NCBI GenBank assembly: GCA_014879655.1
Contig: JACSRS010000083.1
Coordinates: 1 to 34,131, forward strand
Origin: Burkholderiaceae bacterium
GTDB taxonomy: Bacteria > Pseudomonadota > Gammaproteobacteria > Burkholderiales > Burkholderiaceae_C
DNA length: 34,131 nucleotides
Direction: 5' to 3'
The notes below the pieces were generated by a model, which was not told where the DNA came from, made no database searches, and worked only from the letters and a program-made list of their open reading frames with translations. The position numbers and the translations under genes were made by a program. Of this stretch, positions 2,111 to 31,449 are shown one piece after another; positions within the stretch are counted from its first letter, which is position 1; the number at the start of each line of letters is the position of its first letter.

Positions 2111-4213
2111 TCAGCGCACCCGCATGCCCGGCTGCGCACCCGGCCAGGGGTTCAGCACATAGATGCCTGGTGAGGCCTTTTCGTCAGCGGCGCTGGCGGC
2201 CAGCACCATGCCCTCGCTGACGCCGAACTTCATCTTGCGGGGCGCAAGGTTGGCCACCATCACCGTCAGCTTGCCGATCAGGTCAGCCGGCTGGTAGGCG
2301 CTGGCGATGCCTGAGAAAACATTTCGATGGCGCCCTTCGCCAGCGTCCAGCGTCAGTCGCAGCAGCTTGGTCGAGCCTTCCACCGGCTCGCAGTTGACGA
2401 TCAGCGCAATGCGCAGATCGATCTTCGCAAAATCATCGATCGTGATCAGCGGGGATATTGCCTCGCCGCCGGGCAGGGCGAGGGTTTCTTCAGCGGCTTC
2501 GGCAGCCGGCGCGGGTGCGGGCTCGAACAGCGCTTCGAGCTGTTTCACGTCCACACGCTGCATCAGGTGGCGGTATTCGCCAATGGCGTGGCCGGCGGGC
2601 AGGCGCGTACCGGCGCCATCAAAAGTCAGCGGCTCGACTTTCAGAAAGGCTTCGACCTGCGCCGCCAGTTCGGGCAGCACCGGCTTCAGGTAGGTGGTGA
2701 GCAGTCGGAAAGCCTGGATGCAGGTGGTGCAGACATCCTGAAGCCGCGTCTCCATGTCGGCTTTTTTGGCCAGTTCCCAGGGCTTGTTCTGGTCCACGTA
2801 TTCGTTCACGCGGTCGGCCAGCAGCATGACTTCGCGCAGCGCCTTGCCGAATTCGCGCTCTGCGTACAGCTCGGCCACGGGCGCCGCGGCGTCCTGCAGG
2901 TGCGACAGCAGCGCGTCGCCATCGGCCGAAACTTCGCCCAGCGCGCCTTCAAAGCGCTTGCTGATGAAGCCGGCCGAGCGCGAGGCGATGTTGATGTATT
3001 TGCCCACCAGATCGGCGTTGACCCGCGCCATGAAGTCTTCCGGGCTGAACTCGACGTCTTCGTTGCGGCTGTTGAGCTTGGCGGCGATGTAATAGCGCAG
3101 CCACTCGGGGTTCATGCCCAGCGACAGGTACTTCAGCGGGTCCAGCCCGGTGCCGCGGCTCTTGCTCATCTTCTCGCTGTTCACCGTCAGGAAACCGTGC
3201 ACAAACACCGCGTTGGGCGTCTTGCGGCCGCTGAAATGCAGCAGCGCCGGCCAGAACAGTGTGTGGAACGTGATGATGTCCTTGCCGATGAAGTGGTACT
3301 GCTCGGTGGCAGGGTCGGCCATGAAAGCGTCGTAGTCCAGTCCCTGCTTGGCAAAGTGGTTCTTCAGTGAGGCCAGGTAACCTATGGGCGCATCGAGCCA
3401 GACGTAGAAGTACTTGCCCGGTGCATCCGGAATCTCGATGCCGAAGTAGGGCGCGTCGCGGCTGATGTCCCAGTCGGACAGGCCGTGGCTTTTCACGCCG
3501 TCTTCGGTTTCGGTCGGCAACAGCCATTCCCTGATCTTGTTGTAGACCTCCATCTGCAGATGGCCGGTATCCTGCGTCCATTCCTCCAGAAAAGCCACGC
3601 AGCGCGGGTCGGACAGCTGGAAAAAATAGTGCTCGGAGTTGCGCAGCACCGGCGTCACGCCGCTGAGCGCCGAGTACGGGTTCTTCAGCTCGGTGGGGCT
3701 GTAGACCGCACCGCAGTTCTCGCAGTTGTCGCCATACTGGTCCCTGGTGCCGCACTTCGGGCATTCGCCCTTGATGAAACGGTCGGGCAGGAACATATTC
3801 TTCTCGGGGTCGAAGAACTGCTCGATGGTGCGGGTGGCGATCAGGCCAGCGGCCTTCAGGTCGCGGTAGATCGCGCGGGCCAGCTCGTGGTTTTCCGGCC
3901 CGTCGGTCGAGTGCCAGTTGTCAAAGGCGATGTGAAAGCCGTCCAGATAGGGTTTGCGGCCGGCGGCGATGTCGGCGACGAACTGCTGGGGCGTCATGCC
4001 AGCCTTTTCGGCCGCGATCATGATCGGCGCGCCGTGGGCGTCATCGGCGCAGACGAAGTGCACGGTGTGGCCCTGCATGCGCTGGAACCGCACCCAGATG
4101 TCAGCCTGGATGTATTCCATGATGTGGCCGATGTGGAACTTGCCGTTGGCGTACGGCAGGGCGGTGGTGACGAAAAGCTGGCGCGGGGCCGGCTTTGAAA
4201 GCGTTGCGGGCAT
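2111..4213 (-). CDS. metG: methionyl-tRNA synthetase
   Basis: This cytoplasmic class I aminoacyl-tRNA synthetase charges tRNA-Met with methionine using ATP. At 700 residues it has the length of the long bacterial form. Visible signatures are the HIGH motif at residues 27-30 (ANGKFHIGH), the zinc knuckle with Cys151, Cys154, Cys164 and Cys167, the KMSKS loop at 348-352 ([15 protein letters not shown]), and a C-terminal EMAPII/Trbp111-like tRNA-binding domain from ~590 ([12 protein letters not shown] ... [19 protein letters not shown]). An Ala/Glu-rich linker (~555-585) joins the anticodon-binding and C-terminal domains. It is divergent from apbC with a 91-bp gap. No strong ribosome site is visible before the ATG. 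It is an intact, ordinary housekeeping gene. Confidence 0.97.
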
Positions 4214-4251: not shown

Positions 4252-4304
4252 AGTTGTCGCTACACTGCCCGCCTGCCCCTGTCTCAAGTACGAAAGATTC
4301 CCGA

Positions 4305-5393
4305 ATGGCCACGCCCGAACAGTTGCTGCAAGCCCTCCAGTCCGTCGTCGACCCGAACACCGGCGCCGACTTTGTCTCGACCAAAGCCCTGAAGAACCTG
4401 CAGGTCACCGGCGGCGACGTGTCGTTCGACGTCGAGCTGGGCTACCCGGCGAAGAGCCAGATTCCGGCCCTTCGCCGCGCACTGATCGCCGCTGCCAAAG
4501 GCGTTGCGGGCGTGGACAACGTCTCGGCCAACGTCACGATGCGCGTCGTCGCCCACGCGGCGCAGCGCGGCGTGGCGCTGCTGCCCAAGGTGAAGAACAT
4601 CATTGCCGTGGCGTCTGGCAAGGGCGGCGTGGGCAAGAGCACCACGGCGGCCAACCTGGCGCTGGCGCTGGCCGCCGAAGGTGCCGCCGTCGGCCTGCTT
4701 GACGCCGACATCTACGGCCCGAGCCAGCCGATGATGATGGGTATCGAAGGCCGGCCCGAAAGCGCCGACGGCCAGACCATGGAGCCGATGGAAAACTTTG
4801 GCGTGCAGGTCATGTCCATCGGTTTCCTGGTGGCGCAGGACGAAGCCATGATCTGGCGCGGCCCGATGGCCACGCAGGCGCTGGAGCAGCTGCTGCGCCA
4901 AACCAACTGGAAAGATCTGGACTACCTGATTGTCGACATGCCGCCCGGCACCGGCGACATCCAGCTCACGCTGTCGCAGCGCGTGCCGATGACCGGCGCG
5001 GTCATCGTCACTACCCCGCAGGACATCGCGCTTCTCGACGCCAAGAAGGGCATCAAGATGTTCGAGAAGGTCGGCGTGCCCATTCTGGGGATCGTCGAAA
5101 ACATGGCGGTGCACGTGTGCAGCAACTGCGGTCATGTCGAGCACATCTTTGGCGCCGACGGCGGCAAGAAGATGGCCGCTCAGTACAACATGGACTACCT
5201 GGGCGCGCTGCCGCTGGCGATGCAGATCCGCGAACAGGCCGACAGCGGCCGCCCCACCGTGGTGGCCGACCCCGACGGCGAGGTCGCCGCGATCTACAAG
5301 ACCGTTGCCCGGCAGGTGGCGATCAAGATAGCGGCCAAGGCGAAGGATTTTTCGTCGAAGTTTCCTTCGATCAAGATTTCGAAGGACACGTAA
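4305..5393 (+). CDS. apbC: iron-sulfur cluster carrier protein ApbC/Mrp
   Basis: This cytoplasmic MinD/Mrp-family P-loop ATPase binds and transfers Fe-S clusters to apo-proteins. Residues ~5-85 form the N-terminal MIP18/DUF59 domain (LLQALQSVVDPNTGADFV). The deviant Walker A (SGKGGVGKST) lies at ~104-113, followed by DADIYGPSQP and DMPPGTGD, all typical of ApbC. The C-terminal CSNCG supplies the CxxC used for cluster binding at the dimer interface. The length (362 residues) is normal. I start it at the ATG at 4305 because the product then begins MATPEQLLQAL, as in the family; an upstream TTG would add 17 non-conserved residues. Several Fe-S enzymes in this window (BoxA, FdsA, the fused FdsG-FdsB) are conceivable clients, but that link is only inference. 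Confidence 0.95.
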   Translation: MATPEQLLQALQSVVDPNTGADFVSTKALKNLQVTGGDVSFDVELGYPAKSQIPALRRALIAAAKGVAGVDNVSANVTMRVVAHAAQRGVALLPKVKNIIAVASGKGGVGKSTTAANLALALAAEGAAVGLLDADIYGPSQPMMMGIEGRPESADGQTMEPMENFGVQVMSIGFLVAQDEAMIWRGPMATQALEQLLRQTNWKDLDYLIVDMPPGTGDIQLTLSQRVPMTGAVIVTTPQDIALLDAKKGIKMFEKVGVPILGIVENMAVHVCSNCGHVEHIFGADGGKKMAAQYNMDYLGALPLAMQIREQADSGRPTVVADPDGEVAAIYKTVARQVAIKIAAKAKDFSSKFPSIKISKDT

Positions 5394-5735: not shown

Positions 5736-7295
5736 TCACCCCCCTGAACGTTCCCGCTCCCGCAGCCGGAACCGCTGAATCTTCCCCGTCGCAGTCTTTG
5801 GCAACTCGGCGACGAATTCGATGAAACGCGGGTACTTGTAGGGCGCCAGCCGCTCTTTCACAAAGGCCTGGGCTTCGGCCTCGGTCAGGGCCTGGCCGGC
5901 CTTCAGCACGATGAAGGCCTTGGTCTTGACCAGACCGTCGGCGTCAATGGTGCCGATCACGGCGGCTTCCAGAATGGCGGGGTGCTGCATCAGCGTGGAT
6001 TCGACCTCGAACGGCGAAACATAGATGCCGCTGACCTTGAGCATGTCGTCGTTGCGGCCGGCGTAGGTGTAGTAACCGTCAGCGCTGCAGGTGTACTTGT
6101 CACCGCTTTGTGTCCATGCGCCCTGGAAGGTGGCGCGGGACTTGCCTCGCTCGTTCCAGTACATCAGCGCGCTGCTCGGGCCTTTCACGTACAGATCGCC
6201 GATCTGGTTGGCGCCGACGACCTTGCCGGTTTCGTCGCGCAGTTCGATCTCGTAGCCGGGCACGGGTTTGCCGGTGGTGCCGTAGCGCACGTCGCCGGGG
6301 CGGTTGGAAAGGTAGACATGCAACATTTCCGTGGAGCCGATGCCGTCGATGATTTCGCAGCCGAAACGATCGTTCCAGCGCTCGCCAATCTCGCGCGGCA
6401 GGGCTTCACCGGCGGACGAGCACAGGCGCAGGCTGACCTGCGCGCGCCCGGGCAGGTCGGGGGAAGCCAGCATGCCGCCGTAACCGGTGGGTGCGCCGTA
6501 AAACACAGTGGGTTGCTGTTCGGTCAGGCGCTTGAAGACGGCCTGCGGCGTCGGACGCTCGGCCATCAGGATGACGCGGGCGCCCACGCTGAGCGGGAAG
6601 GTCAGCGCATTGCCCAGCCCGTAGGCAAAAAAGAGCTTGGCGGCTGAAAACACCGTGTCGGATTCGCGCAGGCCCAGCACGGCCTTTCCGTAGAGCTCGG
6701 CCGTCCAGTACAGGTTGCCCTGGCTGTGCACCGTCCCTTTCGGTTTGCCGGTGGAACCGGATGAATACAGCCAGAAGCCGGGTTCGTCCGCGTGGGTGGG
6801 TGCGGGTGCCGTCATGGGCGGCTGCGCCGCGATGAAGCTTGCAAAGTCCTTCGCGCCATCAGGCAGGGCGGCTGCGCCGGGGCGCGAGACGATCAGGTGC
6901 TTGACCTCGTGCTGGCCCTGCGCCAGCGCCTGCTGCAGCGTGGCCAGCAGCGGCGCCGAGACCAGCGCCGCCTGCGCGCGGCTGTGGCCGGCCATGTAGG
7001 CGTAGTCCTGCGCGGTGAGCAAGGTGTTGAGCGCGACCGGCACCACGCCGGCGTACAGCGCGCCCAGAAAGGTCACCACCCAGTCGGTGCTGTCGTGCAT
7101 CAGCAGCAGCACGCGCTCCTCCCGGTGCAGGCCGAGCGAGTGCAGGGCGGCGGCGCAGCGCTGCACTCGCTCGGCCAGATCGCCATAGCTCAGCGATTCC
7201 TGGTCGTCTAGCAGTGCGATCTTGTCGGCACGTTCGGCGTTGAGGGCGAGCAGGTGGCCGGCGAAGTTGAACTGGGCGGCTGGCGGGTTCACCAT
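5736..7295 (-). CDS. bclA: benzoate-CoA ligase
   Basis: This cytoplasmic acyl-adenylate-forming enzyme (ANL superfamily, 519 residues) converts benzoate, ATP and CoA to benzoyl-CoA, the entry step of the box pathway. The AMP-binding P-loop YSSGSTGKPKGTVHSQGN lies at ~175-193, the adenine-binding region IDGIGSTEMLH at ~310-320, the hinge AGRNDDMLKVSGIYVSPFEVE at ~410-430, and the catalytic lysine in TATGKIQRFRLRE near the C-terminus. The pattern IDGIGSTEMLHVYLSNRPG is typical of benzoate/4-hydroxybenzoate CoA ligases. The ATG has AGGAGA about 7 nt upstream. The gene is divergent from boxR; its promoter contains TGCA boxes that BoxR probably binds. Close relatives use 2-aminobenzoate or hydroxybenzoates, but the box context favours benzoate. 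Confidence 0.93.
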   Translation of the reverse strand: MVNPPAAQFNFAGHLLALNAERADKIALLDDQESLSYGDLAERVQRCAAALHSLGLHREERVLLLMHDSTDWVVTFLGALYAGVVPVALNTLLTAQDYAYMAGHSRAQAALVSAPLLATLQQALAQGQHEVKHLIVSRPGAAALPDGAKDFASFIAAQPPMTAPAPTHADEPGFWLYSSGSTGKPKGTVHSQGNLYWTAELYGKAVLGLRESDTVFSAAKLFFAYGLGNALTFPLSVGARVILMAERPTPQAVFKRLTEQQPTVFYGAPTGYGGMLASPDLPGRAQVSLRLCSSAGEALPREIGERWNDRFGCEIIDGIGSTEMLHVYLSNRPGDVRYGTTGKPVPGYEIELRDETGKVVGANQIGDLYVKGPSSALMYWNERGKSRATFQGAWTQSGDKYTCSADGYYTYAGRNDDMLKVSGIYVSPFEVESTLMQHPAILEAAVIGTIDADGLVKTKAFIVLKAGQALTEAEAQAFVKERLAPYKYPRFIEFVAELPKTATGKIQRFRLRERERSGG

Positions 7296-7372: not shown

Positions 7373-7418
7373 TGCATTATTGTGCTTGCGAGCATAATAT
7401 GCAGTAAAGTGCATGTCA
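7373..7418. promoter_or_regulatory. probable BoxR operator cluster upstream of bclA
   Basis: Palindromic TGCA cores occur at 7373, 7400 and 7410, with a further one at 7341. The two inner cores sit between the -35 and -10 of the bclA promoter. The 9-mers TAAAGTGCA (7405-7413) and TGCATGTCA (7410-7418) recur at the boxC promoter (8387-8395 and 8431-8439). BzdR/BoxR-type regulators are known to use TGCA-containing operators; their use here is inferred. Confidence 0.65.
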
Positions 7419-7419
7419 A
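7391..7419 (-). promoter_or_regulatory. sigma70 promoter of bclA
   Basis: On the minus strand TTGACA (7419-7414) is separated by exactly 17 bp from TATGCT (7396-7391), a near-consensus sigma70 promoter about 95 bp before the bclA start. The -35/-10 spacer carries two TGCA boxes, so a bound regulator would block polymerase. Confidence 0.75.
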
Positions 7420-8386: not shown

Positions 8387-8439
8387 TAAAGTGCAGATTT
8401 TCTTGACAATACTGGAAAAGCGCAACATAATGCATGTCA
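8387..8439 (+). promoter_or_regulatory. boxC promoter with probable BoxR operators
   Basis: TTGACA (8403-8408) is followed after exactly 17 bp by CATAAT (8426-8431). TGCA cores at 8392 and 8431 flank the promoter; the second overlaps the end of the -10. TAAAGTGCA (8387-8395) and TGCATGTCA (8431-8439) are identical to 9-mers at the bclA promoter. Transcription should begin near 8438, leaving an untranslated leader of roughly 130 nt before boxC. The promoter starts just after the boxR stop. Confidence 0.75.
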
Positions 8440-8565
8440 TCGGGTCAAGAGGCCAGTGCAGTTGGCACCAAACCCGCCCTGCTTCGGGCCTGCCGAAGCG
8501 TCGATTGTCCCGGCACCGCCGGCCATCCGGATGGCGCGGGGTTTGCCGATTTACCAGGAGTGAAT

Positions 8566-10224
8566 GTGACCCATCCCGCCCCCGTTGACTACCGCACCGA
8601 ACCCGGACGCTACCGTCATCTGAAGCTCAGCTATGACGGCGCAGTCGCTACGCTGGCCATCGAGATCGATGAAGACGCCGGCATCCGCCCCGGCTACAAG
8701 CTCAAGCTCAACAGCTACGACCTCGGCGTGGACATCGAACTGCACGACGCGCTGCAGCGCATCCGCTTTGAACACCCCGAGGTGCGCAGCGTCATCGTCA
8801 CCAGCGCCCGTGACCGGGTGTTCTGCTCCGGTGCCAACATCTTCATGCTCGGTGTATCCAGCCACGGCTGGAAAGTCAACTTCTGCAAGTTCACCAACGA
8901 AACGCGCAACGGCATCGAGGATTCCAGCCGCCATTCGGGGCTGAAATTCGTCGCCGCGCTCAACGGCGCCTGCGCCGGCGGGGGCTACGAGCTGGCGCTG
9001 GCCTGCGACGACATCGTGCTGGTGGACGACCGTTCTTCATCGGTCTCGCTGCCCGAAGTGCCGCTGCTGGGCGTGCTGCCCGGCACCGGCGGCCTGACCC
9101 GCGTGACCGACAAGCGCCACGTGCGCCACGACCTGGCCGATATCTTCTGTACCACGGCTGAAGGCGTGCGCGGCCAGAAAGCTGTGGACTGGCGCCTGGT
9201 CGACGCGGTCGCCAAGCCGCAGCAGTTTGCCGCCGTTGTGCGGGAGCGCGCAGAAAAGCTCGCTGCTACCAGTGACCGCCCGGCCGACGCAAAAGGCGTG
9301 GCCCTGACGCCGTTGTCGCGCACGGACAGTGCCAATGGCCTGGCCTACACGCATGTGGCAGTGGTGATCGACCGCGCCCGCCGCAACGCCACTTTCATCG
9401 TCAAGGCGCCCGATGGCGCGCAGCCGGCCGACGTCGCCGCCATTGAGGCAGCGGGTGCTGCCTGGTGGCCGCTGCAGATGGCGCGAGAGCTGGACGACGC
9501 CATCCTGCACATGCGCACCAACGAGCTGGACATCGGCACCTGGATCCTGAAGACCGAAGGCGACGCCGCCGCCGTGCTGGCCTGTGATGCGGCGCTGCTG
9601 GCCAACCAGAGCCACTGGTTCGTGCGCGAAACCATCGGCATGCTGCGCCGCACGCTGGCGCGGCTCGATGTATCGTCTCGCAGCCTGTTTTCGCTGATCG
9701 AACCCGGCTCGTGTTTTGCCGGCACGCTGGCGGAGCTGGCCTTTTGCGCCGACCGCGCCTACATGCTGGTGCTGCCTGACGAACCCGAGCGGCAGCCGGT
9801 GCTGACGCTGGGCGAAATGAACCTCGGCCTTCTGCCCATGGTGAACGACCAGTCGCGTCTGGCGCGCCGTTTCTATGAAGAATCCGGCCCCATGGATGCC
9901 GTTCGTGGCGCGCTCGGACAGCCGCTGGATGGTGACGCCGCGCTGACGCTGGGCCTGGTCACCGCCGCGCCGGACGATATCGACTGGGAGGACGAAATCC
10001 GCATCGCGCTGGAAGAGCGCGCCGCGATGTCGCCCGACGCGCTGACCGGGCTGGAGGCCAATCTGCGCTTTGCCCAGAAGGAAAACATGGCCACCCGCAT
10101 CTTCGGCCGCCTGACCGCCTGGCAGAACTGGATCTTCCAGCGCCCCAATGCGGTGGGCGAGAAGGGCGCGCTCAAGGTTTACGGCACCGGCGAGAAAACC
10201 GCCTTTGACATGAACCGCGTCTGA
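8566..10224 (+). CDS. boxC: BoxC, 2,3-epoxybenzoyl-CoA dihydrolase (ring-opening, formate-releasing)
   Basis: This cytoplasmic crotonase-superfamily enzyme (552 residues, normal for BoxC) opens the epoxidised ring to 3,4-dehydroadipyl-CoA semialdehyde and formate. The N-terminal half carries a crotonase fold: SARDRVFCSGANIFMLG (~85-101), then LNGACAGGGYELALACDDIVLVDD and LPEVPLLGVLPGTGGLTRVTD. A second crotonase-like half follows (~265-520), with ELAFCADRAYMLVLPDEPE. I chose the GTG at 8566, which has AGGAG 5 nt upstream and gives MTHPAPVDYRTEP. An in-frame ATG at 8434 would precede the predicted transcription start and adds non-conserved residues. It is the first gene of boxC-boxB-boxA, 88 bp before boxB. 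Confidence 0.93.
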   Translation: MTHPAPVDYRTEPGRYRHLKLSYDGAVATLAIEIDEDAGIRPGYKLKLNSYDLGVDIELHDALQRIRFEHPEVRSVIVTSARDRVFCSGANIFMLGVSSHGWKVNFCKFTNETRNGIEDSSRHSGLKFVAALNGACAGGGYELALACDDIVLVDDRSSSVSLPEVPLLGVLPGTGGLTRVTDKRHVRHDLADIFCTTAEGVRGQKAVDWRLVDAVAKPQQFAAVVRERAEKLAATSDRPADAKGVALTPLSRTDSANGLAYTHVAVVIDRARRNATFIVKAPDGAQPADVAAIEAAGAAWWPLQMARELDDAILHMRTNELDIGTWILKTEGDAAAVLACDAALLANQSHWFVRETIGMLRRTLARLDVSSRSLFSLIEPGSCFAGTLAELAFCADRAYMLVLPDEPERQPVLTLGEMNLGLLPMVNDQSRLARRFYEESGPMDAVRGALGQPLDGDAALTLGLVTAAPDDIDWEDEIRIALEERAAMSPDALTGLEANLRFAQKENMATRIFGRLTAWQNWIFQRPNAVGEKGALKVYGTGEKTAFDMNRV

Positions 10225-10237
10225 ACACCGCTTCTTG

Positions 10238-10268
10238 TGCCCTGGGTTTCCCGGTGGAGCCCAGGGCA
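10238..10268. promoter_or_regulatory. intercistronic hairpin between boxC and boxB
   Basis: TGCCCTGGG (10238-10246) and CCCAGGGCA (10260-10268) form a perfect 9-bp stem with a 13-nt loop in the 88-bp boxC-boxB gap. No U-run follows, so a terminator is unlikely. An mRNA processing or stabilising role is possible but unproven. Confidence 0.5.
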
Positions 10269-10312
10269 ACCTCAACCGATTCCACCGTTGACTCGCTTTC
10301 GGAGAAGACACC

Positions 10313-11740
10313 ATGACCGCCATGAATTACAGCGACAAGATCCCCAACAACGTCAACCTGTCGGAAGACCGCACGCTGCAGCGCGCGCTGGAGCACTGGC
10401 AGCCCAACTACCTGAAGTGGTGGCAGGACATGGGCCCGGACGGTTCGCAGAACTTCGACGTTTACCTGCGCACCGCCGTCAGCGTGGACCCGCAAGGCTG
10501 GGCCCAGTTTGGCCACGTCAAGATGCCCGATTACCGCTGGGGCATTTTCCTGAATCCGGCCGAGCAGGACCGCAAGATCCACTTTGGCGACCACATGGGC
10601 GAAGCGGCCTGGCAGGATGTTCCCGGTGAACACCGCGCGAACCTGCGCCGCATCATCGTCACGCAGGGCGACACCGAGCCGGCGAGCGTGGAGCAGCAAC
10701 GCCATCTGGGCCTGACCTGCCCCAGCCAGTATGACCTGCGCAATCTGTTCCAGGTCAACGTGGAAGAAGGTCGCCACCTGTGGGCCATGGTCTACCTGCT
10801 GCACAAGCATTTCGGCAAGGACGGCCGCGAGGAAGCCGAGGCGCTGCTGGAGCGCAACAGCGGCGACGCGGACAACCCGCGCATCCTGCAGGCCTTCAAC
10901 GAGAAGACGCCCGACTGGCTCAGCTTTTTCATGTTCACCTATTTCACCGACCGTGATGGCAAGTTCCAGCTGTGCGCGCTGGCCGAGTCGAGTTTTGACC
11001 CGCTGGCCCGCACCACCAAGTTCATGCTGACCGAAGAAGCGCACCACATGTTTGTGGGCGAATCGGGTGTGGGCCGTGTCATCAGCCGCACCTGCGCGGC
11101 GATGAACGAGCTCAAGACAGACGATGTGGGCAAGCTGCGCGCCGCCGGCGTGATCGACCTGCCGACGATCCAGCGCTACATCAATTTCCACTTCAGCGTC
11201 ACGATCGACCTGTTCGGCGCCGACCAGTCGTCCAACGCCGCCACGTTCTACAGTTCGGGCCTGAAGGGGCGCTACGAAGAAGGCAAGCGCACCGATGACC
11301 ATGTGCTCAAGGGTCAGACTTACAAGATCCTCGAAGTGGTCAACGACCAGATGGTCGAGAGAGAAGTGCCGATGCTCAATGCGCTCAACGAGGTGCTGCG
11401 CGACGACTACATCAAGGACAGCGTGGGCGGTGTGGACCGCTGGAACCGCCTGATCGAAAAGGCCGGTATCAGCTTCAAACTGTCGGTGCCGCACAAGGCT
11501 TTCCACCGCAACATCGGTTCGCTGGCCGGCGTCAAGGTGTCGCCGGATGGCCGCGTGGTGCACGACCACGAATGGAACCAGAAGGTCGAGCAGTGGCTGC
11601 CCACCGATGAAGACCGGGCCTATGTCGGTTCGCTGATGGGCCGTGTGGTGGAGCCGGGCAAGTTTGCCAACTGGATCGCGCCACCGGTCATGGGCATCAA
11701 CCGCCAGCCGGTGGATTTTGAGTACGTCCGGTTCAATTGA
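10313..11740 (+). CDS. boxB: BoxB, benzoyl-CoA 2,3-epoxidase oxygenase subunit
   Basis: This soluble class I di-iron oxygenase (475 residues) inserts one oxygen atom into benzoyl-CoA to give the 2,3-epoxide, with electrons from BoxA. Opening residues NLSEDRTLQRALEHWQPNYL are typical of BoxB. The di-iron ligands fit two E-x-x-H motifs: Glu152/His155 in NVEEGRHLW and Glu242/His245 in TEEAHHMFVGESG. The family-typical TYFTDRDGKFQL also lies in the core. A GGAGA ribosome site lies 8 nt before the ATG. It is co-directional with boxC upstream, but a 308-bp gap separates it from boxA, unusually long for two subunits of one enzyme system. Confidence 0.95.
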   Translation: MTAMNYSDKIPNNVNLSEDRTLQRALEHWQPNYLKWWQDMGPDGSQNFDVYLRTAVSVDPQGWAQFGHVKMPDYRWGIFLNPAEQDRKIHFGDHMGEAAWQDVPGEHRANLRRIIVTQGDTEPASVEQQRHLGLTCPSQYDLRNLFQVNVEEGRHLWAMVYLLHKHFGKDGREEAEALLERNSGDADNPRILQAFNEKTPDWLSFFMFTYFTDRDGKFQLCALAESSFDPLARTTKFMLTEEAHHMFVGESGVGRVISRTCAAMNELKTDDVGKLRAAGVIDLPTIQRYINFHFSVTIDLFGADQSSNAATFYSSGLKGRYEEGKRTDDHVLKGQTYKILEVVNDQMVEREVPMLNALNEVLRDDYIKDSVGGVDRWNRLIEKAGISFKLSVPHKAFHRNIGSLAGVKVSPDGRVVHDHEWNQKVEQWLPTDEDRAYVGSLMGRVVEPGKFANWIAPPVMGINRQPVDFEYVRFN

Positions 11741-11771
11741 AGCTGCTTCTGGCCGTATGTGGGCGGAACCC

Positions 11772-11876
11772 GTTGCGGGGCGTGGGTACGTACCGCCGCT
11801 CATGTCCCCCGACCGAATGCGGAAGCCCTCGATCTCCTCCTTGACTTCGCGCTGGTACGCACCCACACCCCGCAAC
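11772..11876. repeat. long imperfect inverted repeat in the boxB-boxA gap
   Basis: The 308-bp stretch 11741-12048 between boxB and boxA has no convincing gene. It contains 23-nt arms at 11772-11794 (GTTGCGGGGCGTGGG...) and 11854-11876 that pair at 21 of 23 positions across a 59-nt loop. A second exact 10-bp pair, CCTCCTTGAC (11836-11845) with GTCAAGGAGG (11951-11960), is interleaved with it. This may be the remnant of a small mobile or REP-like element, or a structured RNA. I see no transposase remnant. Confidence 0.6.
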
Positions 11877-12048
11877 TGCGTCGGGGTTTTCCTGCCGGAC
11901 CATCAAAACGCGGTGCAAGAACGGGCGGGTGGGGTGTGCGGCGCATTGAGGTCAAGGAGGCGGCCAAAGCCCGGGGGATACGAATGCAGCCGTGCACCCC
12001 AGCCGCCTGATCCGGCAGTAAAGTAGTCGCCAAGAATAGGGAAATCTC

Positions 12049-13329
12049 ATGACCGAAGCCGTCATCAAGCAACACCTGATCGACCCCGAGATCTGCATTC
12101 GCTGCAACACCTGCGAGTCGATCTGCCCGGTCGGCGCGATCACACATGACAGCCGCAACTACGTGGTCAAAGCCGACGTCTGCAACCTGTGCATGGACTG
12201 CATCTCGCCATGCCCCACTGGCTCCATCGACAACTGGCGCCGGGTGCTCAGAAGCAAGGCCTACGCCATCGAGGAACAGTTGCTGTGGGACGAATTGCCG
12301 GCAGAACTGAGTGACGATGAACTGGGTGCGGCCGAAGGCGAGGGCGCCGATACAGACGCAGGCGACCAGCGGACCGCCGTTGTGCCTTCAAAGGACGCGG
12401 CCGCAACCGATCTGACCGGCGAGGCCCCCTTCAACGCCGCCGCTTGGGGCGCCACGCTGCCGCCCTGGTCGGCCGCCCATGCCTACACCAACCTGTACGG
12501 CCCCAAGGCGCCGACCACCGCCACCGTGGTGGGCAACTTCCAGGTCAATGAGGCCGGTACCACCAACGAAACGCACCACATCGTGCTGGATCTGGGCGCC
12601 ATGCCTTTCCCGGTGCTCGAAGGCCAGTCGATCGGCATCATCCCGCCCGGCACCGATGCCAGTGGCCGCCTCCACCACGCACGCCAGTACAGCATTGCCA
12701 GCCCGCGCAACGGCGAGCGGCCGGGCTACAACAACCTGTCGCTCACGGTGAAACGCGTCACCGAAGACCACCAGGGCCGGCCGGTCGAGGGCCTGTGCTC
12801 CAGCTACCTGTGCGCGTTGAAGGTGGGCGACAAGGTGCAGGTGGTGGGCCCGTTTGGCACGAGCTTCCTGATGCCCAACCACCCGCGATCGAACATCGTG
12901 ATGATCTGCACCGGCACCGGCAGCGCACCGATGCGCGCGATGACCGAATGGCGACGGCGCCTGCGTGCCACCGGCAAGTTCGAAGGTGGCAAGCTCATGC
13001 TGTTCTTCGGCGCACGCACCCAGGAGGAGCTGCCATATTTCGGCCCGCTGCAAAAGCTTCCTCACGATTTCATCGACATCAATTTCGCCTTTTCGCGCAC
13101 GCCCGGCCAGCCGCGCCGCTATGTTCAGGATGTGCTGCGTGAACGCGCTGCCGATCTGGCCGTGCTGCTGCGCGACAGCAACACCTGCATCTACGTCTGC
13201 GGCCTCAAGAGCATGGAGGAGGGCGTCGTGATGGCGCTGCGCGACGTGGCCACTCAGGCTGGCCTGAACTGGACCACGCTGGGCGAGGCACTGCGCCGCG
13301 AAGGCCGGCTGCACCTGGAAACGTATTGA
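12049..13329 (+). CDS. boxA: BoxA, benzoyl-CoA 2,3-epoxidase reductase subunit
   Basis: This is the NADPH-dependent flavo-iron-sulfur reductase (426 residues) that passes electrons to BoxB. Two bacterial-ferredoxin [4Fe-4S] motifs lie at the N-terminus: Cys16, 19, 22, 26 ([14 protein letters not shown]) and Cys45, 48, 51, 55 ([14 protein letters not shown]). A variable acidic/alanine-rich linker (~80-130) follows, then a ferredoxin-NADP reductase unit with the FAD motif [12 protein letters not shown] (~210), the NADP motif [12 protein letters not shown] (~285-296) and a C-terminal [12 protein letters not shown]. An AGGG ribosome site precedes the ATG. It is third in boxC-boxB-boxA and 64 bp upstream of the formate dehydrogenase genes on the same strand. 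Confidence 0.94.
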
Positions 13330-13393
13330 AACCACCCGGCCGACCGCGTGCCGGCGGTTTGCACCCTGCGCGCCATCCGCTAGGCTACGGCTC

Positions 13394-15216
<1,823 letters not shown>

Positions 15217-15220
<4 letters not shown>

Positions 15221-18078
15221 GCGCCGTCCAGCCGATTGATGCCGGCATCAGCTTCGAGCTCGACAGCGAGCAAATCACCGCCCACCCTGGCGAAACCATC
15301 TGGTCCGCCGCGCGCCGCCACGGCGTGCACATTCCGCACCTGTGCCATACCGACGGCCTGCGGCCCGACGGCAACTGTCGCGCCTGCGTGGTCGAGATCG
15401 AAGGTGAGCGCACGCTCGCGCCCAGCTGCTGCCGCACGCCCGTGCCGGGCCAGAAGGTGCGCGCCCAAAGCCCGCGTGCGCGCAAGAGCCAGGAGATGGT
15501 GCTTGAGCTGCTCCTGGCCGACATGCCCGAGCAGGGCTTCAAGTGGAACGACGCGGTCGGCCCGCCGGCAAGCGCCGCGTCAGCCACGCAAGACGCTGGC
15601 CCCCACGGCGAACTCAGCGCCTGGGCCGCGCGTCTGGGCGTCACGCCACGCCCGGCACTTGCTGCCTTGCGCCGGGAATCCGTATCGCCAGACTTCTCAC
15701 ACCCGGCCATGGCGGTGAACCTGGACGCCTGCATCCAGTGCAACCGCTGCCAGCGCGCCTGCCGAGAAGAGCAGGTGAACGACGTCATCGGCATGGCCTT
15801 CCGCGGCGAACACACGCAGGTGGTCTTTGACCTGGCCGACCCGATGGGCGCGAGCACCTGCGTGGCCTGCGGTGAATGTGTGCAGGCCTGCCCCACCGGC
15901 GCGCTGATGCCAAAAACGCTGATCGGCTCGCAGAGGGTGGACCGCGAGGTGAATTCTGTCTGTCCCTTCTGCGGCGTCGGCTGCTTGGTCACTTACAAGG
16001 TGCGCGATGAAAAAATCGTCGCGGTCGACGGCCGCACTGGCCCGGCCAATGAAGGGCGGTTGTGCGTCAAGGGCCGTTTCGGTTTTGACTACGCCCATCA
16101 CCCCGAGCGCCTGACGCGCCCGCTGATCCGCAAACCCGGCGTGCCCAAAGAACCGCAACAGTTGCAGCGCAAGCTGGACTGGCGCGAAGTGTTCCGTGAA
16201 GCCAGCTGGGAAGAAGCGCTGGACCTGGCCGCCGGCAAACTGGTTGCGCTGCGCGACACCCACGGCAAGAAGGCGCTGGCGGGTTTTGGATCGGCCAAAG
16301 GCAGCAACGAAGAGGCCTACCTGTTCCAGAAACTGGTGCGCACGGGCTTTGGCAGCAACAACGTCGATCACTGCACACGGCTGTGCCATGCGTCCAGCGT
16401 GGCAGCGCTCCTGGAAGGCGTGGGCTCGGGCGCGGTGAGCAACCCGGTGCGGGACGTGGCGCACGCCGACTTCATCCTGGTCATCGGTGCCAACCCCACC
16501 AACAACCACCCGGTGGCCGCCACCTGGATCAAGAACGCGGCGCAGCGCGGCGCCCGTGTGGTGCTGGCCGACCCGCGTCGCACCGATCTGGCGCGCCACA
16601 CCTGGCGTACGCTGCAGTTCCGCGCGGACACCGACGTGGCCCTGCTCAACGCGATGCTGCACGTGATCGTCACCGAGGGGCTGACCAACGAGGCTTTCAT
16701 CCGCGAGCGGGTGGGCGACTTTGATGCGCTCCGGGTCAACGTGCAGGGCTACAGCCCCGAAGCCATGGCGCCCATCTGCGGCATACCGGCGGGCACCATC
16801 CGCGAAGTGGCGCGCGCCTACGCCACGGCAAACGCGTCGATGATCCTGTGGGGCATGGGCGTGAGCCAGCATGTGCACGGCACCGACAACGTGCGTTGCC
16901 TGATCGCGCTGGCCAGCATCACCGGCCAGATCGGCCGCCCTGGCACCGGCCTGCACCCCCTGCGCGGGCAGAACAATGTGCAGGGCGCCAGCGACGCCGG
17001 ACTGATCCCCATGATGTACCCCAACTACCAGCGCGTGGCTGATGCCAATGTGCGAAGCTGGTTTGAAGGCTTTTGGGGCGCCACACTAGACAACCAGCCC
17101 GGCTACACCGTGGTCGAGATCATGAACAAGGCGCTGGCGCCAGACACTGACCCGCACAAGGTGCGCGGGATGTACGTGTTGGGTGAGAACCCCGCCATGA
17201 GCGACCCCGACCTCAACCACGCCCGCCACGCGCTGGCCAGCCTTGAGCACCTCGTGGTGCAAGACATCTTCCTGACTGAGACCGCCTGGCTGGCCGACGT
17301 GGTGCTGCCCGCCAGCGCCTGGCCCGAAAAAGCCGGCACCGTCAGCAACACCGACCGCATGGTGCAGATGGGCCGCCCCGCGCTGCAGCCGCCGGGCGAA
17401 GCGCGCGCTGATCTGTGGATCATCCAGCAGCTGGCTGAACGCTTTGGCCTGGGCTGGAGCTATGAAAAGCAGAGTGAAGAAGCTCAGAAGGGCGATGGCT
17501 ACCACGGCGTGGAGCATGTTTTTGAAGAAATGCGCCAGGCCATGCAGGGTTCAATAGCCGGCATTACCTGGGAGCGGCTGGCACGTGAAGACAGCGTGAC
17601 CTACCCCTGCCTGAGCGAGGACGAACCCGGCCAGCCCATCGTCTTCCACGACCGCTTCCCCACAGCGAGCGGGCGCGTCAAACTGGTGCCGGCCGATATC
17701 ATCCCCGCCGACGAGCGTCCCGACGCCGACTACCCCATGGTTCTCATCACCGGCCGCCAGCTGGAACACTGGCACACCGGCAGCATGACCCGTCGCAGCG
17801 GCGTGCTCGATGCTCTGGAGCCCGCCGCCACGGCCTGCCTGCACGGCGATGATCTGGCCGGACTGGGCCTGCAGCCGGGTGATGTGGTTGAAGTGGCCTC
17901 ACGCCGCGGCGCGATCCGGCTGCACGCCCGGCGTGACGACGGCATGCCCCCTGGTACCGTCTACATCCCCTTCGCCTACATCGAAGCCGCCGCCAACCTG
18001 CTCACCAACGCCGCGCTCGACCCGGTCGGGAAGATTCCGGAGGTGAAGTATTGCGCGGTTAGGGTGGGTAGGGGGTAG
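15217..18078 (+). CDS. fdsA: NAD-dependent formate dehydrogenase, molybdopterin catalytic subunit FdsA
   Basis: This cytoplasmic molybdenum enzyme (953 residues) oxidises formate to CO2 and passes electrons to the FdsG-FdsB protein. The N-terminus is a [2Fe-2S] domain (HIPHLCHTDGL, NCRACVVEI, SCCRTP; first Cys at 43). Next come two [4Fe-4S] motifs (CIQCNRCQRACREE and CVACGECVQACPTG) and the molybdopterin domain with its own cluster (CPFCGVGCLV ... GRLCVKGRFGFDY). The Mo ligand is Cys390 in HCTRLCHASSV, so this is the Cys rather than selenocysteine type. The dinucleotide-binding domain is at the C-terminus (ITGRQLEHWHTGSMTRRSG). The ATG overlaps the preceding stop and has GGAGG upstream. The usual partners fdsC (sulfuration/chaperone) and fdsD do not follow it. 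Related nuoG-like or hydrogenase-linked subunits are less likely given HCTRLCHASS. Confidence 0.93.
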
Positions 18079-28102: not shown

Positions 28103-28803
28103 GTGACGGCTTCTTGGGCCGCTGGTCGCGCCGCAAGCTCGATCAGAACGCGCCAGCGGCGCGGGCCGAACCTGCGCCGCCAGCCGGCAAGCTGCCGCCG
28201 CTTGACCGGGCCGCCACGGCAACGGGCCCTGCCGATGCGCCGGTTGCCGCGAATGCGCCTGCATCAACGGCGCCCGTGTCAGGCGCTTCACCCGGGTCAT
28301 CCGGAGAGGGCAACCGCGCCGAGGCGCCGCCGCTGCCCACCCTGGACGACGTGCGCCAGCTGACCACCAGTTCCGACTTCCAGCCCTTCATGGCCCGGGG
28401 CGTCTCGCCCGAGGTACGCAATGCCGCGGTGAAGAAACTGTTCACCGACCCGCACTACAACGTGATGGACGGGCTGGACATCTACATCGACGACTACACA
28501 AAATCCGACCCCATCCCGCCGGCCATGCTGCGCCAGATGTCCAGCGCCTGGGCGCTGGGGCTTTTTGACGACGACGAGAAGAAAGCCGCAGAAAATTCCC
28601 CGGCTGCCGCTGGTGATCCGTCAGAAGCCGAGCCGGGTGGTGAAACGGCGCCGGCCGCCGCAGCCACCGAATCCCCTGTCCCGCCGGCGCTTGCCGGTGA
28701 AGCGGACGCCCCTACCGAGCCCCCCGAACATGCCCACACTGATCTGCGACTGCAACCAGACGATGCCGCTCAACGCGAAAGCGCTGGGTCAGGCGCTGCG
28801 TGA
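28099..28803 (+). CDS. DUF3306 protein, formate dehydrogenase accessory cluster
   Basis: This 234-residue protein opens with the typical DUF3306 signature MSDGFLGRWSRRKLD. After an Ala/Pro-rich linker comes the conserved core LPTLDDVRQLTTSSDFQPFM, VRNAAVKKLFTDPHYNVMDGLDIYIDDY and MLRQMSSAWALGLF (~85-160). The tail is acidic and Ala/Pro-rich. The GTG start overlaps the DUF3305 stop (GTGA). Its last 25 codons overlap the start of the following Fe-S gene in another frame. Its function is unknown; it travels with formate dehydrogenase assembly genes. Confidence 0.85.
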   Translation: MSDGFLGRWSRRKLDQNAPAARAEPAPPAGKLPPLDRAATATGPADAPVAANAPASTAPVSGASPGSSGEGNRAEAPPLPTLDDVRQLTTSSDFQPFMARGVSPEVRNAAVKKLFTDPHYNVMDGLDIYIDDYTKSDPIPPAMLRQMSSAWALGLFDDDEKKAAENSPAAAGDPSEAEPGGETAPAAAATESPVPPALAGEADAPTEPPEHAHTDLRLQPDDAAQRESAGSGAA

Positions 28804-30832
28804 AGACCTGACGCTGCATTCCACCTTGTGCCGGCGCGAAGCCGGTGCGTTCCAGCAGGCGGTGAAAACCGGAGACGAGGTGGTGGTTGCCTGCACGCAG
28901 GAGCAGCGCCTGTTTGCCGAACTGGGCGAGCAGACGGTCGGCGCCACGTCACCGATCCGCTTCGTCAACATCCGCGAGACCGGTGGCTGGAGCCGCGATG
29001 CTGCCAAGGCCGGCCCGAAGATCGCCGCGCTGCTGGCGGCCGCGCACCTGCCCGACCCCGACCCCGTCCCCACGGTCACCTTCAGGAGTGCCGGGCGGCT
29101 GCTGATCATCGGCCCGCTCGACGCAGCCGAGCGGGCGGCGGCGCTGCTGTCGGACGTGCTGGACGTGACGCTTTTTGCGCAGGGGCCGGGCAGCGCCGGT
29201 GGCGCGCAGGCGCGCCAGTTCCCGGTGCTGGGCGGCCGCATCACGGCGCTGTCGGGCTGGCTGGGCGCTTTCGATCTGACCTGGGAGGCGAACAACCCGA
29301 TCGACCTGGACCTGTGCACCCGCTGCAACGCTTGCGTGGCCGCATGCCCGGAAAACGCCATCGGGCTGGACTACCAGATCGACCTGAACGCCTGCCAGTC
29401 GCACCGTGCCTGCGTGAAGGCCTGCCAGGTGGCCGGCGCCATCGATTTCGGCCGGGATCCGGCCGCGCAGTCGGAGAGTTTCGATCTGGTGCTTGACCTG
29501 CGGCCCGCAGCGAGCACACCGACCTTCAACCAGCATGCGCTGCCGCAGGGGTATTTCCGCTGGAACGGCCAGGATCTGCCGACGCTGCTGAAGCTGCGCG
29601 ATCTGGTCGGTGAATTCGAGAAGCCGAAGTTCTTCAACTACAAGCCCGGCATCTGCGCGCACAGCCGCAACATGACGGTGGGCTGCAACGCCTGCGTTGA
29701 CATCTGTTCGGCCGAGGCCATCACGAGCGAGCGCAAGCAGCAGCAGATCAGGGTCAACCCGAATCTTTGTGTCGGCTGCGGTGCCTGCACCACGGTCTGC
29801 CCCACCGGCGCGCTGACCTATGCCTACCCGCCGGCCAGCCATCAGGGCGCGAAACTGCGCACGCTGCTGTCCACCTATGCGGCCGCGGGCGGCAAGGATG
29901 CGGTGCTGTTGCTGCACAGCCAGGACAAGGGCCGGGCGCTGGTCGAGGAACTCGGCCGCGCAGCGATGCTGAAGGTGGCGCAGGGCGTGCCGGCCAACGT
30001 GATACCGGTGTCGCTGTGGCACGCGGCCAGCCTGGGGCTGGATGTCTGGCTCAGCGCGGTGGCCTTCGGCGCCAGCCAGATCGTGGTGCTCACCACGGAT
30101 GAAGAAGCGCCGCAGTACCTGGAAGGCCTGCAGGCGCAGATGGACGTGGCGCAGACCCTTCTGAACGGCCTGGGCTACACCGGCAGTCACCTGCAACTGC
30201 TGCGGGCCCGCACGCCGACCGACCTGGACGCCAGCCTGCAGGCGCTGCGGGCCACGCGCCAGAAGACCCCGGCGGTGGCCGCGCGATTTGCCGTGGCGCA
30301 GGAAAAGCGCACCACGCTGGACCTCGCGCTCGACCATCTGATCGAACATGCACCGCTGGCGGCCGATGCGCGGCCAGACGCCATCGCTTTGCCGGCGGGC
30401 GCTTCGCCGCTGGGTTCGGTGCAGGTCGACAAGGACAAGTGCACGCTGTGCCTGAGCTGCGTCAGCGCCTGCCCGGCCAGCGCGCTGCAGGACAACCCTG
30501 AACTGCCGCAGCTGCGCTTCATCGAGAAAAATTGTGTGCAGTGCGGCCTTTGTGTCAGCACCTGCCCGGAAGACGCGCTGCAGCTGGTGCCGCGCCTGCT
30601 GGCGACGCCCGAGCGCAAGAGTGCCCGTGTGCTCAATCAGACCCAGCCTTATGTCTGCGTGCGCTGCGGCAAGCCGTTTGGCACGCTCAAGGCCATCGAG
30701 GCCATGCTGGGCAAGCTGGGCGGTCATGCGATGTTCCAGGGCGCGGCGCTGGAGCGGCTGAAGATGTGCGGCGACTGCCGCGTGATCGACATCTATTCCT
30801 CTGACAACGAAATCCGGATCACCGACCTATGA
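28730..30832 (+). CDS. multi-cluster 4Fe-4S protein, formate dehydrogenase accessory cluster
   Basis: This 700-residue soluble protein is rich in ferredoxin-type motifs: Cys196/199/202/206 (CTRCNACVAACP), a related CQSHRACVKAC at ~222, GCNACVDICSAEAI (~320), Cys347 onward (CVGCGACTTVCPTGAL), Cys571 onward (CTLCLSCVSACPASAL) and Cys602 onward (CVQCGLCVSTCPEDAL). Near the C-terminus CVRC (643-646) and CGDC (680-683) look like a zinc-ribbon or rubredoxin-like site. The region between (~365-560) resembles the hydrogen-sulfide/heterodisulfide reductase-delta type domain found in this family. It probably carries electrons or helps assemble a formate dehydrogenase. The ATG at 28730 has no strong ribosome site and lies inside the end of the DUF3306 gene, so coupling is expected. 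Confidence 0.85.
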   Translation: MPTLICDCNQTMPLNAKALGQALREDLTLHSTLCRREAGAFQQAVKTGDEVVVACTQEQRLFAELGEQTVGATSPIRFVNIRETGGWSRDAAKAGPKIAALLAAAHLPDPDPVPTVTFRSAGRLLIIGPLDAAERAAALLSDVLDVTLFAQGPGSAGGAQARQFPVLGGRITALSGWLGAFDLTWEANNPIDLDLCTRCNACVAACPENAIGLDYQIDLNACQSHRACVKACQVAGAIDFGRDPAAQSESFDLVLDLRPAASTPTFNQHALPQGYFRWNGQDLPTLLKLRDLVGEFEKPKFFNYKPGICAHSRNMTVGCNACVDICSAEAITSERKQQQIRVNPNLCVGCGACTTVCPTGALTYAYPPASHQGAKLRTLLSTYAAAGGKDAVLLLHSQDKGRALVEELGRAAMLKVAQGVPANVIPVSLWHAASLGLDVWLSAVAFGASQIVVLTTDEEAPQYLEGLQAQMDVAQTLLNGLGYTGSHLQLLRARTPTDLDASLQALRATRQKTPAVAARFAVAQEKRTTLDLALDHLIEHAPLAADARPDAIALPAGASPLGSVQVDKDKCTLCLSCVSACPASALQDNPELPQLRFIEKNCVQCGLCVSTCPEDALQLVPRLLATPERKSARVLNQTQPYVCVRCGKPFGTLKAIEAMLGKLGGHAMFQGAALERLKMCGDCRVIDIYSSDNEIRITDL

Positions 30833-31449
30833 GCCCCACCGATGCACCGTCGTCGTCCGCGCTGGACGAAGAAACCGCCCGCGCCGAGGTCTATGGCCTG
30901 CTGGCCGCGCTGACCTATGCGCCGCCGACGCCCGAGCTGCTGTCGCAACTGCGGGTGGCTGCGACCGAAGCGCCTGCAGCCGGCGGTTTTCTGGAAGAAC
31001 CCTGGCGTGAACTGGTGGCGCAGACCCGCGCGATGACCGACGAGGCCATCGCCGCCGAGTACGACAGCCTGTTCGGCGGTGTCGGCAAACCCGAGGTCTA
31101 CCTGTATGGCTCACACTACCTGAGCGGTTTCCTGAATGAAAAGCCGCTGGTGGCGCTGCGGCACGATCTGGCTGAACTTGGCCTGGCGCGCGACGAATCG
31201 ATGCCCGAAACCGAGGATCACATCGCCTGCCTGTGCGAGGTGATGCGCTACCTGATCGCCGGTGACGATGTGGCGGTGGCCAACCTGACGCGCCAGCGCG
31301 CCTTCTACGCCGCGCATCTGCAGCCCTGGGTCAACCCGCTGTGTGACGCACTGGCCGGGCACCCGCGGGCGCGCTTCTATGCGGCGCTGGCCGGCTTCCT
31401 GCGGGCGTTTGCCAGTGTCGAGGCGCAGGGTTTCGACATGCTGGACTGA
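30829..31449 (+). CDS. TorD-family molybdoenzyme chaperone
   Basis: This is a 206-residue helical cytoplasmic chaperone of the TorD/DmsD type, which holds a molybdoenzyme precursor until its cofactor is inserted. Typical features are RAEVYGLLAALTYAPP (~20-35), AAEYDSLFGGVGKPEVYLYGSHYLSG (~66-90), KPLVALRHDLAELGLAR and TEDHIACLCEVMRYLI (~128-143). The start overlaps the previous stop (ATGA). In relatives this gene is followed by a formate dehydrogenase catalytic subunit; here the operon ends at a terminator-like hairpin and the next gene is convergent. Confidence 0.88.
   Translation: MSPTDAPSSSALDEETARAEVYGLLAALTYAPPTPELLSQLRVAATEAPAAGGFLEEPWRELVAQTRAMTDEAIAAEYDSLFGGVGKPEVYLYGSHYLSGFLNEKPLVALRHDLAELGLARDESMPETEDHIACLCEVMRYLIAGDDVAVANLTRQRAFYAAHLQPWVNPLCDALAGHPRARFYAALAGFLRAFASVEAQGFDMLD

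What the first reader, a model, noticed from the sequence alone, without database searches (positions are those of the whole stretch)
8566..18078. Box benzoate genes followed directly by a formate dehydrogenase: in-operon recycling of ring-derived formate
boxC, boxB, boxA, the fused FdsG-FdsB gene and fdsA lie in one direction, with only 64 bp between boxA and the dehydrogenase genes. Established knowledge: BoxC releases formate when it opens 2,3-epoxybenzoyl-CoA, and Fds enzymes oxidise formate with NAD+. Inference: the carbon lost as formate is turned to NADH in the same transcription unit, offsetting the reductant spent by BoxA/BoxB. I do not know of this coupling as a named system.
Basis: partly seen in the sequence, partly recalled or inferred. 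Interest (0 to 1): 0.75.

Follow-up and report, generated by a model that had tools for sequence, protein, structure and literature searches.

The report
Formate dehydrogenase behind benzoate operon
In this bacterium the genes that break down benzoate are followed directly by genes for an enzyme that should oxidise formate, a by-product of that breakdown; the idea of such a link is already in print, but here the benzoate genes sit inside an older formate gene neighbourhood, where in many relatives a regulator gene stands.

Summary
In detail: boxC, boxB, boxA, fdhB and fdhA run in one direction, with 64 bp between boxA and fdhB and an ATGA overlap between fdhB and fdhA. The dehydrogenase is of the Methylobacterium FDH1 type (beta subunit a NuoE-NuoF fusion) rather than FdsABG proper. 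What is added here: (1) of 138 same-family genomes with both genes placed, 18 have them within 20 kb, 17 of those with fdh downstream on the same strand, in 10 genus groups; (2) box-linked dehydrogenases fall in several separate parts of the FdhA tree; (3) many related loci without box genes nearby read metG-apbC-lysR-fdhBA-polyferredoxin-torD, and in this window the box cluster stands between apbC and fdhBA with lysR gone. The likeliest reading is that fdhBA now depends on the BoxR-controlled box promoter. Co-transcription, benzoate induction and enzyme activity are untested. Close linkage is a minority state (18 of 138), lysR is also missing from 24 of 62 loci without nearby box genes, and in the nearest relative fdhBA lies about 15 kb from box.

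The parts
2111..4213 (-). metG, left end of the conserved formate-locus neighbourhood
   Evidence: NCBIfam PRK00133 over cut-off; same place in related loci
4254..5393 (+). apbC/mrp iron-sulfur carrier; in many related loci lysR and fdhBA follow it
   Evidence: NCBIfam PRK11670 over cut-off; synteny
5736..7295 (-). bclA, benzoate-CoA ligase
   Evidence: TIGR02262 777 bits, cut-off 375
7391..7419 (-). promoter-like site for bclA, overlapping the BoxR operator-like site
7400..7413 (.). BoxR/BzdR operator-like TGCA-N6-TGCA, the only one in the window
   Evidence: spacing rule from PMC6449761
7470..8384 (+). boxR, helix-turn-helix plus shikimate-kinase-like regulator
   Evidence: PRK08154 436 bits, cut-off 204; PF01202 and PF01381
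8382..8395 (.). degenerate operator-like TGAA-N6-TGCA just before the operon promoter
   Evidence: read from sequence
8403..8431 (+). promoter-like TTGACA-17-CATAAT before boxC (11 of 12 matches)
8566..10224 (+). boxC, 2,3-epoxybenzoyl-CoA dihydrolase (releases formate)
   Evidence: TIGR03222; PDB 2w3p 918 bits
10313..11740 (+). boxB, benzoyl-CoA epoxidase
   Evidence: TIGR03225; PDB 3per 810 bits
11741..12048 (.). 308-bp boxB-boxA spacer with strong inverted repeats
   Evidence: RNA fold z -2.69
12049..13329 (+). boxA, reductase of benzoyl-CoA epoxidase
   Evidence: TIGR03224
13330..13393 (.). 64-bp junction; no promoter-like or terminator-like site, one lone TGCA
13394..15220 (+). fdhB, NuoE-NuoF fused diaphorase subunit of FDH1-type formate dehydrogenase
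   Evidence: PF01257, PF01512, PF10589; PDB 7e5z_B
15217..18078 (+). fdhA, catalytic W/Mo subunit; ATGA overlap with fdhB
   Evidence: TIGR01591 over cut-off; PDB 7vw6_A; Cys-His pair kept
28565..31449 (+). polyferredoxin and TorD-type chaperone, right part of the formate locus
   Evidence: found behind fdhA in many related loci

Best explanation
fdhB and fdhA encode a cytosolic NAD-linked formate dehydrogenase of the Methylobacterium FDH1 type that has become the tail of a BoxR-controlled benzoate operon. BoxR lets go of one promoter before boxC (in response to benzoyl-CoA, as I recall for other species); the message runs through boxC, boxB, boxA, fdhB and fdhA; BoxC sets formate free when it opens the ring and FdhAB oxidises it to CO2 and NADH. 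Shown: gene identities by family, order, spacing, no obvious signals at the junction, recurrence in other lineages, and the box cluster standing between apbC and fdhBA of a conserved formate locus. Inferred: single transcript, control by BoxR, NAD as acceptor, and BoxC formate as the main substrate.
For: Family and structure matches. One promoter-like site on the + strand in 7200-18300, before boxC; no promoter-like or terminator-like site at 13330-13393. Operator-like TGCA-N6-TGCA within 250 bp upstream of boxR in 16 of 19 linked rows with that much sequence, and in 0 of 26 boxA-fdhB gaps. boxA-fdhB gap 300 bp or less in 18 of 26 linked rows, 6 bp in 7 of them (starts chosen by script; two rows are one organism). 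18 of 138 genomes with both genes placed have them within 20 kb, 17 of the 18 same strand and downstream. Box-linked FdhA rows lie in several places of the tree and one clade was rejected. In G117 the order is boxCBA, enoyl-CoA hydratase, 3-hydroxyacyl-CoA dehydrogenase, 3-oxoadipyl-CoA thiolase, fdhB, fdhA. The FDH-linked lysR is missing from the window, and the genome's best matches to it are 26 and 31 %.
Against: No expression data. 120 of 138 genomes with both genes placed do not have them within 20 kb on one held contig, many being drafts. 71 of 210 box genomes lack an FDH1-type beta gene at the cut-off used. In the nearest relative, G063, fdhBA lies about 15 kb behind box, after a second FDH set. 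Two linked loci, L096 and L097, keep the lysR before fdhB. lysR is also not found in 24 of 62 loci without nearby box genes. The exact operator site is not present before boxC here, only a one-mismatch form. The two promoter-like sites are hardly above chance in number (2 found, mean 1.0, sd 1.1 in shuffles). The boxB-boxA spacer could form strong hairpins.
Confidence: 0.72

Rival explanations
1. Neighbours by history only: the box cluster landed in a general-purpose formate locus, and fdhBA still serves formate from many sources under its own, undetected promoter.
For: Many related loci have the same neighbourhood (metG-apbC-lysR-fdhBA-polyferredoxin-torD) with no box genes in the fetched flank; 51 of 190 genomes with this FDH have no BoxB; 120 of 138 genomes with both do not have them within 20 kb on one held contig.
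Against: Close linkage also occurs where neither apbC nor metG was seen within 12.5 kb beyond the fetched locus: G117, G015, G113, G289 and G436; 17 of 18 close pairs share strand and order; the FDH-linked regulator is gone and no promoter-like site was found before fdhB.
Confidence: 0.2
2. fdhBA serves mainly in general redox balance, and benzoate formate is handled by a second, membrane-type FDH encoded further right (on contig C4 in this genome).
For: A polyferredoxin, TorD and sensor kinase at 28565-33656 of the window, and an FdhA-like protein of 988 aa at the end of contig C4, have their counterparts in one run in G063, with a 4Fe-4S protein and a cytochrome b561-like protein.
Against: fdhBA, not the second set, stands behind boxA here and, within 300 bp, in 18 of 26 linked rows; in G063, however, box is followed by the polyferredoxin of the second set.
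Confidence: 0.08

Closest known systems
Azoarcus (Aromatoleum) sp. EbN1 box cluster with FdhBA (Suvorova and Gelfand 2019, PMC6449761, passages read)
   Same: FdhBA next to BoxR-controlled box genes; role in oxidising BoxC formate already proposed there
   Different: There a thioesterase gene and fdhBA lie close to the lactonase gene of the box cluster; in Azoarcus BH72 they are near box but too far for co-transcription, by the paper's account. Here fdhBA directly follows boxA and the whole lies in a conserved apbC-fdhBA locus
MeFDH1 of Methylobacterium (Methylorubrum) extorquens AM1 (PDB 7vw6, 7e5z; PMC10869683, passages read)
   Same: Two-subunit enzyme, beta subunit a NuoE-NuoF fusion, Cys-His at the position of the metal ligand Cys436
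   Different: Belongs to a methylotroph; here linked to aromatic breakdown. Metal (W or Mo) and activity unknown here
FdsABG-type formate dehydrogenases of Cupriavidus necator and Rhodobacter capsulatus (recalled; PDB 6tg9 matched with 578 bits)
   Same: NAD-linked formate dehydrogenases of the same superfamily
   Different: Separate FdsG and FdsB; FdhA here is far closer to MeFDH1 (1246 bits) than to 6tg9_A (578 bits); no fdsC or fdsD directly behind fdhA

Membership tests
box (aerobic benzoyl-CoA epoxidation) cluster | BoxA, BoxB, BoxC above curated cut-offs | tested here: met
box (aerobic benzoyl-CoA epoxidation) cluster | benzoate-CoA ligase and BoxR in divergent arrangement | tested here: met
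box (aerobic benzoyl-CoA epoxidation) cluster | BoxD aldehyde dehydrogenase present | not tested
   not among the window proteins scanned; the rest of the genome was not searched for it
FDH1-type (MeFDH1) NAD formate dehydrogenase | alpha subunit with 2Fe-2S, 4Fe-4S and molybdopterin domains; Cys-His at the metal site | tested here: met
   Cys-His in 111 of 111 FdhA rows
FDH1-type (MeFDH1) NAD formate dehydrogenase | beta subunit a NuoE-NuoF fusion | tested here: met
FDH1-type (MeFDH1) NAD formate dehydrogenase | formate oxidation with NAD+, W or Mo bound | not testable with these tools
   needs enzyme assay
FdsABG operon (features recalled) | separate fdsG and fdsB, with fdsC/fdsD behind fdsA | tested here: not met
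   one fused gene; the next gene after fdhA is an alpha/beta hydrolase on the other strand
BoxR regulon | TGCA repeats with the reported spacing between bclA and boxR | tested here: met
   TGCA-N6-TGCA at 7400
BoxR regulon | the same at the promoter of boxCBA | tested here: inconclusive
   only a one-mismatch form at 8382
BoxR regulon | fdhBA transcribed from the BoxR-controlled promoter | not testable with these tools
   no RNA data; no other promoter-like site found on that strand

The most novel reading that the evidence does not exclude
Regulatory capture of a formate locus: a benzoate cluster entered a conserved apbC-lysR-fdhBA formate locus, the locus lost its LysR regulator, and the dehydrogenase passed from that regulator (possibly formate sensing, as C. 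necator FdsR is) to BoxR. Box genes at this site do not form one clade (10 rows against 29, p-AU 0.002), so the capture happened more than once or the box genes were exchanged in place. G044 (L096) would be an intermediate: apbC, box cluster, MaoC gene, lysR still there, fdhBA.
Probability: 0.45. Interest if true: 0.6.

Novelty: new variant of a known kind. Interest (0 to 1): 0.48.

Why it matters
Formate is the one carbon lost from the ring in the box pathway. If its oxidation is wired into the same operon, each benzoate yields an extra NADH under benzoate control. The comparison also offers a case of how operons may grow: a catabolic cluster beside the gene for handling its own by-product, with loss of an older regulator and possible intermediate states (L096, L097). 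Records titled Limnohabitans sp. T6-20, 2KL-1 and Bal53 hold the same order, so it should be testable in isolates.

Tried and rejected
Considered and rejected: that the enzyme is a NuoEFG fragment or hydrogenase diaphorase (best match by far is FDH1); that boxC starts at 8434; a known structured RNA in 7200-18300 (no Rfam match at E 0.1 or better); a terminator in the 64-bp junction (fold z -0.31; none, where all 8 terminator-like sites found lie elsewhere and 7.6 were expected by chance); that the lactonase-like gene at 18152-18928 belongs to the module (no match in other fetched linked loci). Led nowhere: C. necator FdsR could not be compared with the lysR by sequence; the AU test on the full FdhA set did not finish, so a subset of 42 rows was used.

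Limits: genomes were drawn evenly within family and order; rows are not independent. 'Without nearby box genes' means none in the fetched flank (up to about 8 kb upstream), not in the genome. L001 and L103 were dropped from the FdhA tree; L155, L005, L082, L006, L131 and L135 from the BoxB+BoxA tree. In one search L155, L005 and L130 bear the label 'unlinked', which is wrong for the first two and loose for L130 (box about 15 kb from fdhBA). In one search box-linked rows were fetched on purpose, so their number says nothing of frequency; 31 rows had unknown context, and without them the label needs 6 changes; L111 is labelled 'no' though box genes lie about 15 kb off on its chromosome. In one search L007 was counted as box-linked. 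In one search L046, L067 and L089 were counted as 'site' without sight of apbC (p-AU 0.0009); one search repeats the test with them neutral (0.0018; 0.0024 without L098 and L112). Rows with under 1.3 kb upstream of fdhB were left out of the lysR count, and L102 and L108-L111 were counted apart (5 rows, none with lysR).

Full report
What is there. The window holds, left to right, metG (-), apbC (+), bclA (-), boxR (+), then boxC, boxB, boxA, fdhB and fdhA on the + strand, then an alpha/beta hydrolase on the - strand. Identities are firm for the box genes, bclA and boxR. BoxC matches the solved enzyme 2w3p over residues 46-596 of the long ORF, 918 bits; BoxB matches 3per, 810 bits. The last two genes are a formate dehydrogenase of the Methylobacterium FDH1 type: FdhA matches 7vw6_A with 1246 bits and FdhB matches 7e5z_B with 678 bits, while the next formate dehydrogenase alpha subunit, 9wxb_B, reaches 583 bits. 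The paper on MeFDH1 (PMC10869683, passages read) names Cys436 as metal ligand; it aligns with the Cys of the window's TRLCHASS, and that Cys-His pair is present in 111 of 111 FdhA rows aligned. So 'fused FdsG-FdsB' is best called FDH1 beta. In this genome it is the one place over the TIGR01591 cut-off; two others match below it, one of them nearest to nitrate reductase and formate dehydrogenase models beside a uroporphyrinogen methyltransferase, the other the 988-aa protein on C4.

Signals. The scan of 7200-18300 found two promoter-like sites: 8403-8431 (+), before boxC, and 7419-7391 (-), for bclA (mean 1.0 in shuffles, so weak evidence alone). No promoter-like and no terminator-like site was found in 13330-13393; terminator-like sites elsewhere were as many as chance gives (8 against 7.6). 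The junction does not fold better than shuffles (z -0.31). BoxR and BzdR are said to bind TGCA repeats spaced by 1, 6 or 15 bases (PMC6449761, passages read). TGCA-N6-TGCA occurs once in the window, at 7400, on top of the bclA promoter-like site; a copy with one mismatch lies at 8382, just before the boxC promoter-like site. In linked loci the exact site is upstream of boxR in 16 of 19 rows that had 250 bp (not in L097, L099, L107), and in none of 26 boxA-fdhB gaps; the long gaps of L099 and L100 do hold TGCA pairs spaced by 1 or 15. fdhB and fdhA overlap by ATGA.

How common. In 399 genomes of the window's family, 210 have BoxB and 190 an FDH1-type beta gene at E 1e-150; 139 have both, 71 BoxB only, 51 FDH only, 138 neither (odds ratio 5.3, not corrected for kinship). 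Places were known for both in 138 genomes. In 18 of these the two lie within 20 kb and in 11 within 3.5 kb; 17 of the 18 have fdh downstream of boxB on the same strand, the exception being G196. The 17 lie in 10 genus groups. The other 120 show no such closeness, though many are drafts. At order level 75 of 399 genomes have BoxB; the 67 of them outside the family were searched for FdhA and 63 had a match. From their places I fetched five that lay near each other: G436 has boxRCBA-fdhBA in one run, G521, G592 and G621 have fdhBA 10-15 kb off on the bclA side, and G775 about 15 kb off. The family appears to be that of Limnohabitans: contig and FdhA of G263 equal those of Limnohabitans sp. T6-20.

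Not one origin. On an FdhA tree of 109 rows the window falls in a set of 19 rows, 18 of them box-linked (SH-aLRT 99); the 19th, L007, has box genes about 15 kb upstream on its contig. Other box-linked rows lie elsewhere: L087/L089/L098, L097, L095, L050, and L107-L109. The label needs 7 changes against 24.1 in shuffles. Holding 17 box-linked rows together in a 42-row set was rejected, p-AU 8e-48. The tree cannot tell gain from loss.

Genes between box and fdh in the looser cases often belong to the pathway: a MaoC-like dehydratase in L095 and L096, 3-oxoadipyl-CoA thiolase in L097, and hydratase, dehydrogenase and thiolase in L099. Others do not: an MFS transporter in L050, an amidase on the other strand in L098. 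Of the 7-10 kb gaps of L100 and L101 only two L100 ORFs were scanned, without a match.

The site. Many related loci read metG-apbC-lysR-fdhB-fdhA, followed by polyferredoxin and torD. Of 62 loci without box genes in the fetched flank and with at least 1.3 kb upstream, 46 have apbC upstream, 28 have the lysR within 1.5 kb and 38 within 5 kb; 24 show none. In the window apbC is followed by bclA, boxR, boxCBA and then fdhBA. The order apbC, box cluster, fdhBA is seen also in G376 and, when flanks were fetched, in G384, G188, G263, G087, G044, G070 and G175, with 0.1 to 5.3 kb between apbC and bclA. In G117, G015, G113, G289 and G436 neither apbC nor metG was seen in 12.5 kb beyond the fetched locus. 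Of 25 box-linked rows in the lysR count 2 keep it, L096 and L097 (Fisher p 4e-6 against 38 of 62, 9e-4 against 28 of 62; rows not independent). The window's genome has no close copy: best matches 26 and 31 % (assembly 96 % complete). C. necator FdsR responds to formate (PMC7057948, passages read); whether the lysR here is its ortholog was not tested. Box genes at the apbC site do not form one clade (10 rows against 29, p-AU 0.002).

Against a simple story. G063, the nearest by FdhA and by box genes, has box followed by polyferredoxin, torD, kinase, regulator and a second FDH set, and only then fdhBA. The direct boxA-fdhB junction is thus not fixed even among near relatives. lysR is missing without nearby box genes too (24 of 62).

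Prior work. PMC6449761 (passages read) says that FdhBA in Azoarcus EbN1 might be co-transcribed with box genes and oxidise BoxC's formate, citing Gescher 2006 (not seen). PMC4782131 links formate from aromatics to FDH in SAR324 (passages read). PMC10803450 describes box genes in Limnohabitans; 'formate' does not occur in its text (find). PMC5987411 (passages read) reports BoxB and BoxA of Pandoraea only on kraft lignin and formate dehydrogenase raised there, which the authors tie to oxalate and formate metabolism. Searches listed other papers that I did not open (one search listed 25 of 295), so I cannot say that no further account exists; most subscription papers are not held. I recall, without having seen it here, that C1 genes rise with benzoate in B. 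xenovorans LB400.

Verdict. The new part is the place: a benzoate cluster inside a formate locus with the old regulator gone.

Noticed in passing
window 11741-12048: The boxB-boxA spacer holds long inverted repeats (RNA fold z -2.69); pieces are 73-75 % alike to stretches on contigs C23 and C27, perhaps a dispersed element. Limnohabitans-type rows have 243-523 bp here.
   Followed up: partly
window 28565-34131 and G000 contig C4 end (L106): Contig C8 ends at 34131 inside a regulator gene; the end of C4 carries a 988-aa FdhA-like protein. In G063 their counterparts are neighbours, so C8 and C4 may adjoin.
   Followed up: partly
L050: Limnohabitans sp. DM1: box genes group with other Limnohabitans but FdhA falls in another clade, behind an MFS transporter gene (lactate-transporter model, below cut-off); looks like replacement of the dehydrogenase in place.
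   Followed up: partly
L057: A record titled Akkermansia muciniphila carries a Limnohabitans-like box-fdh locus; probably a mis-binned contig.
   Followed up: no
L046, L067, L080 boxA-fdhB gaps: Repeat-like stretches (such as GTAGGAGCC and AGGTCGGTGGCTT) sit in the gap where seven other rows have 6 bp.
   Followed up: no
L006/L135 (G121) and L131 (G130): A second, much more divergent BoxB class co-occurs with the ordinary one in these genomes.
   Followed up: no
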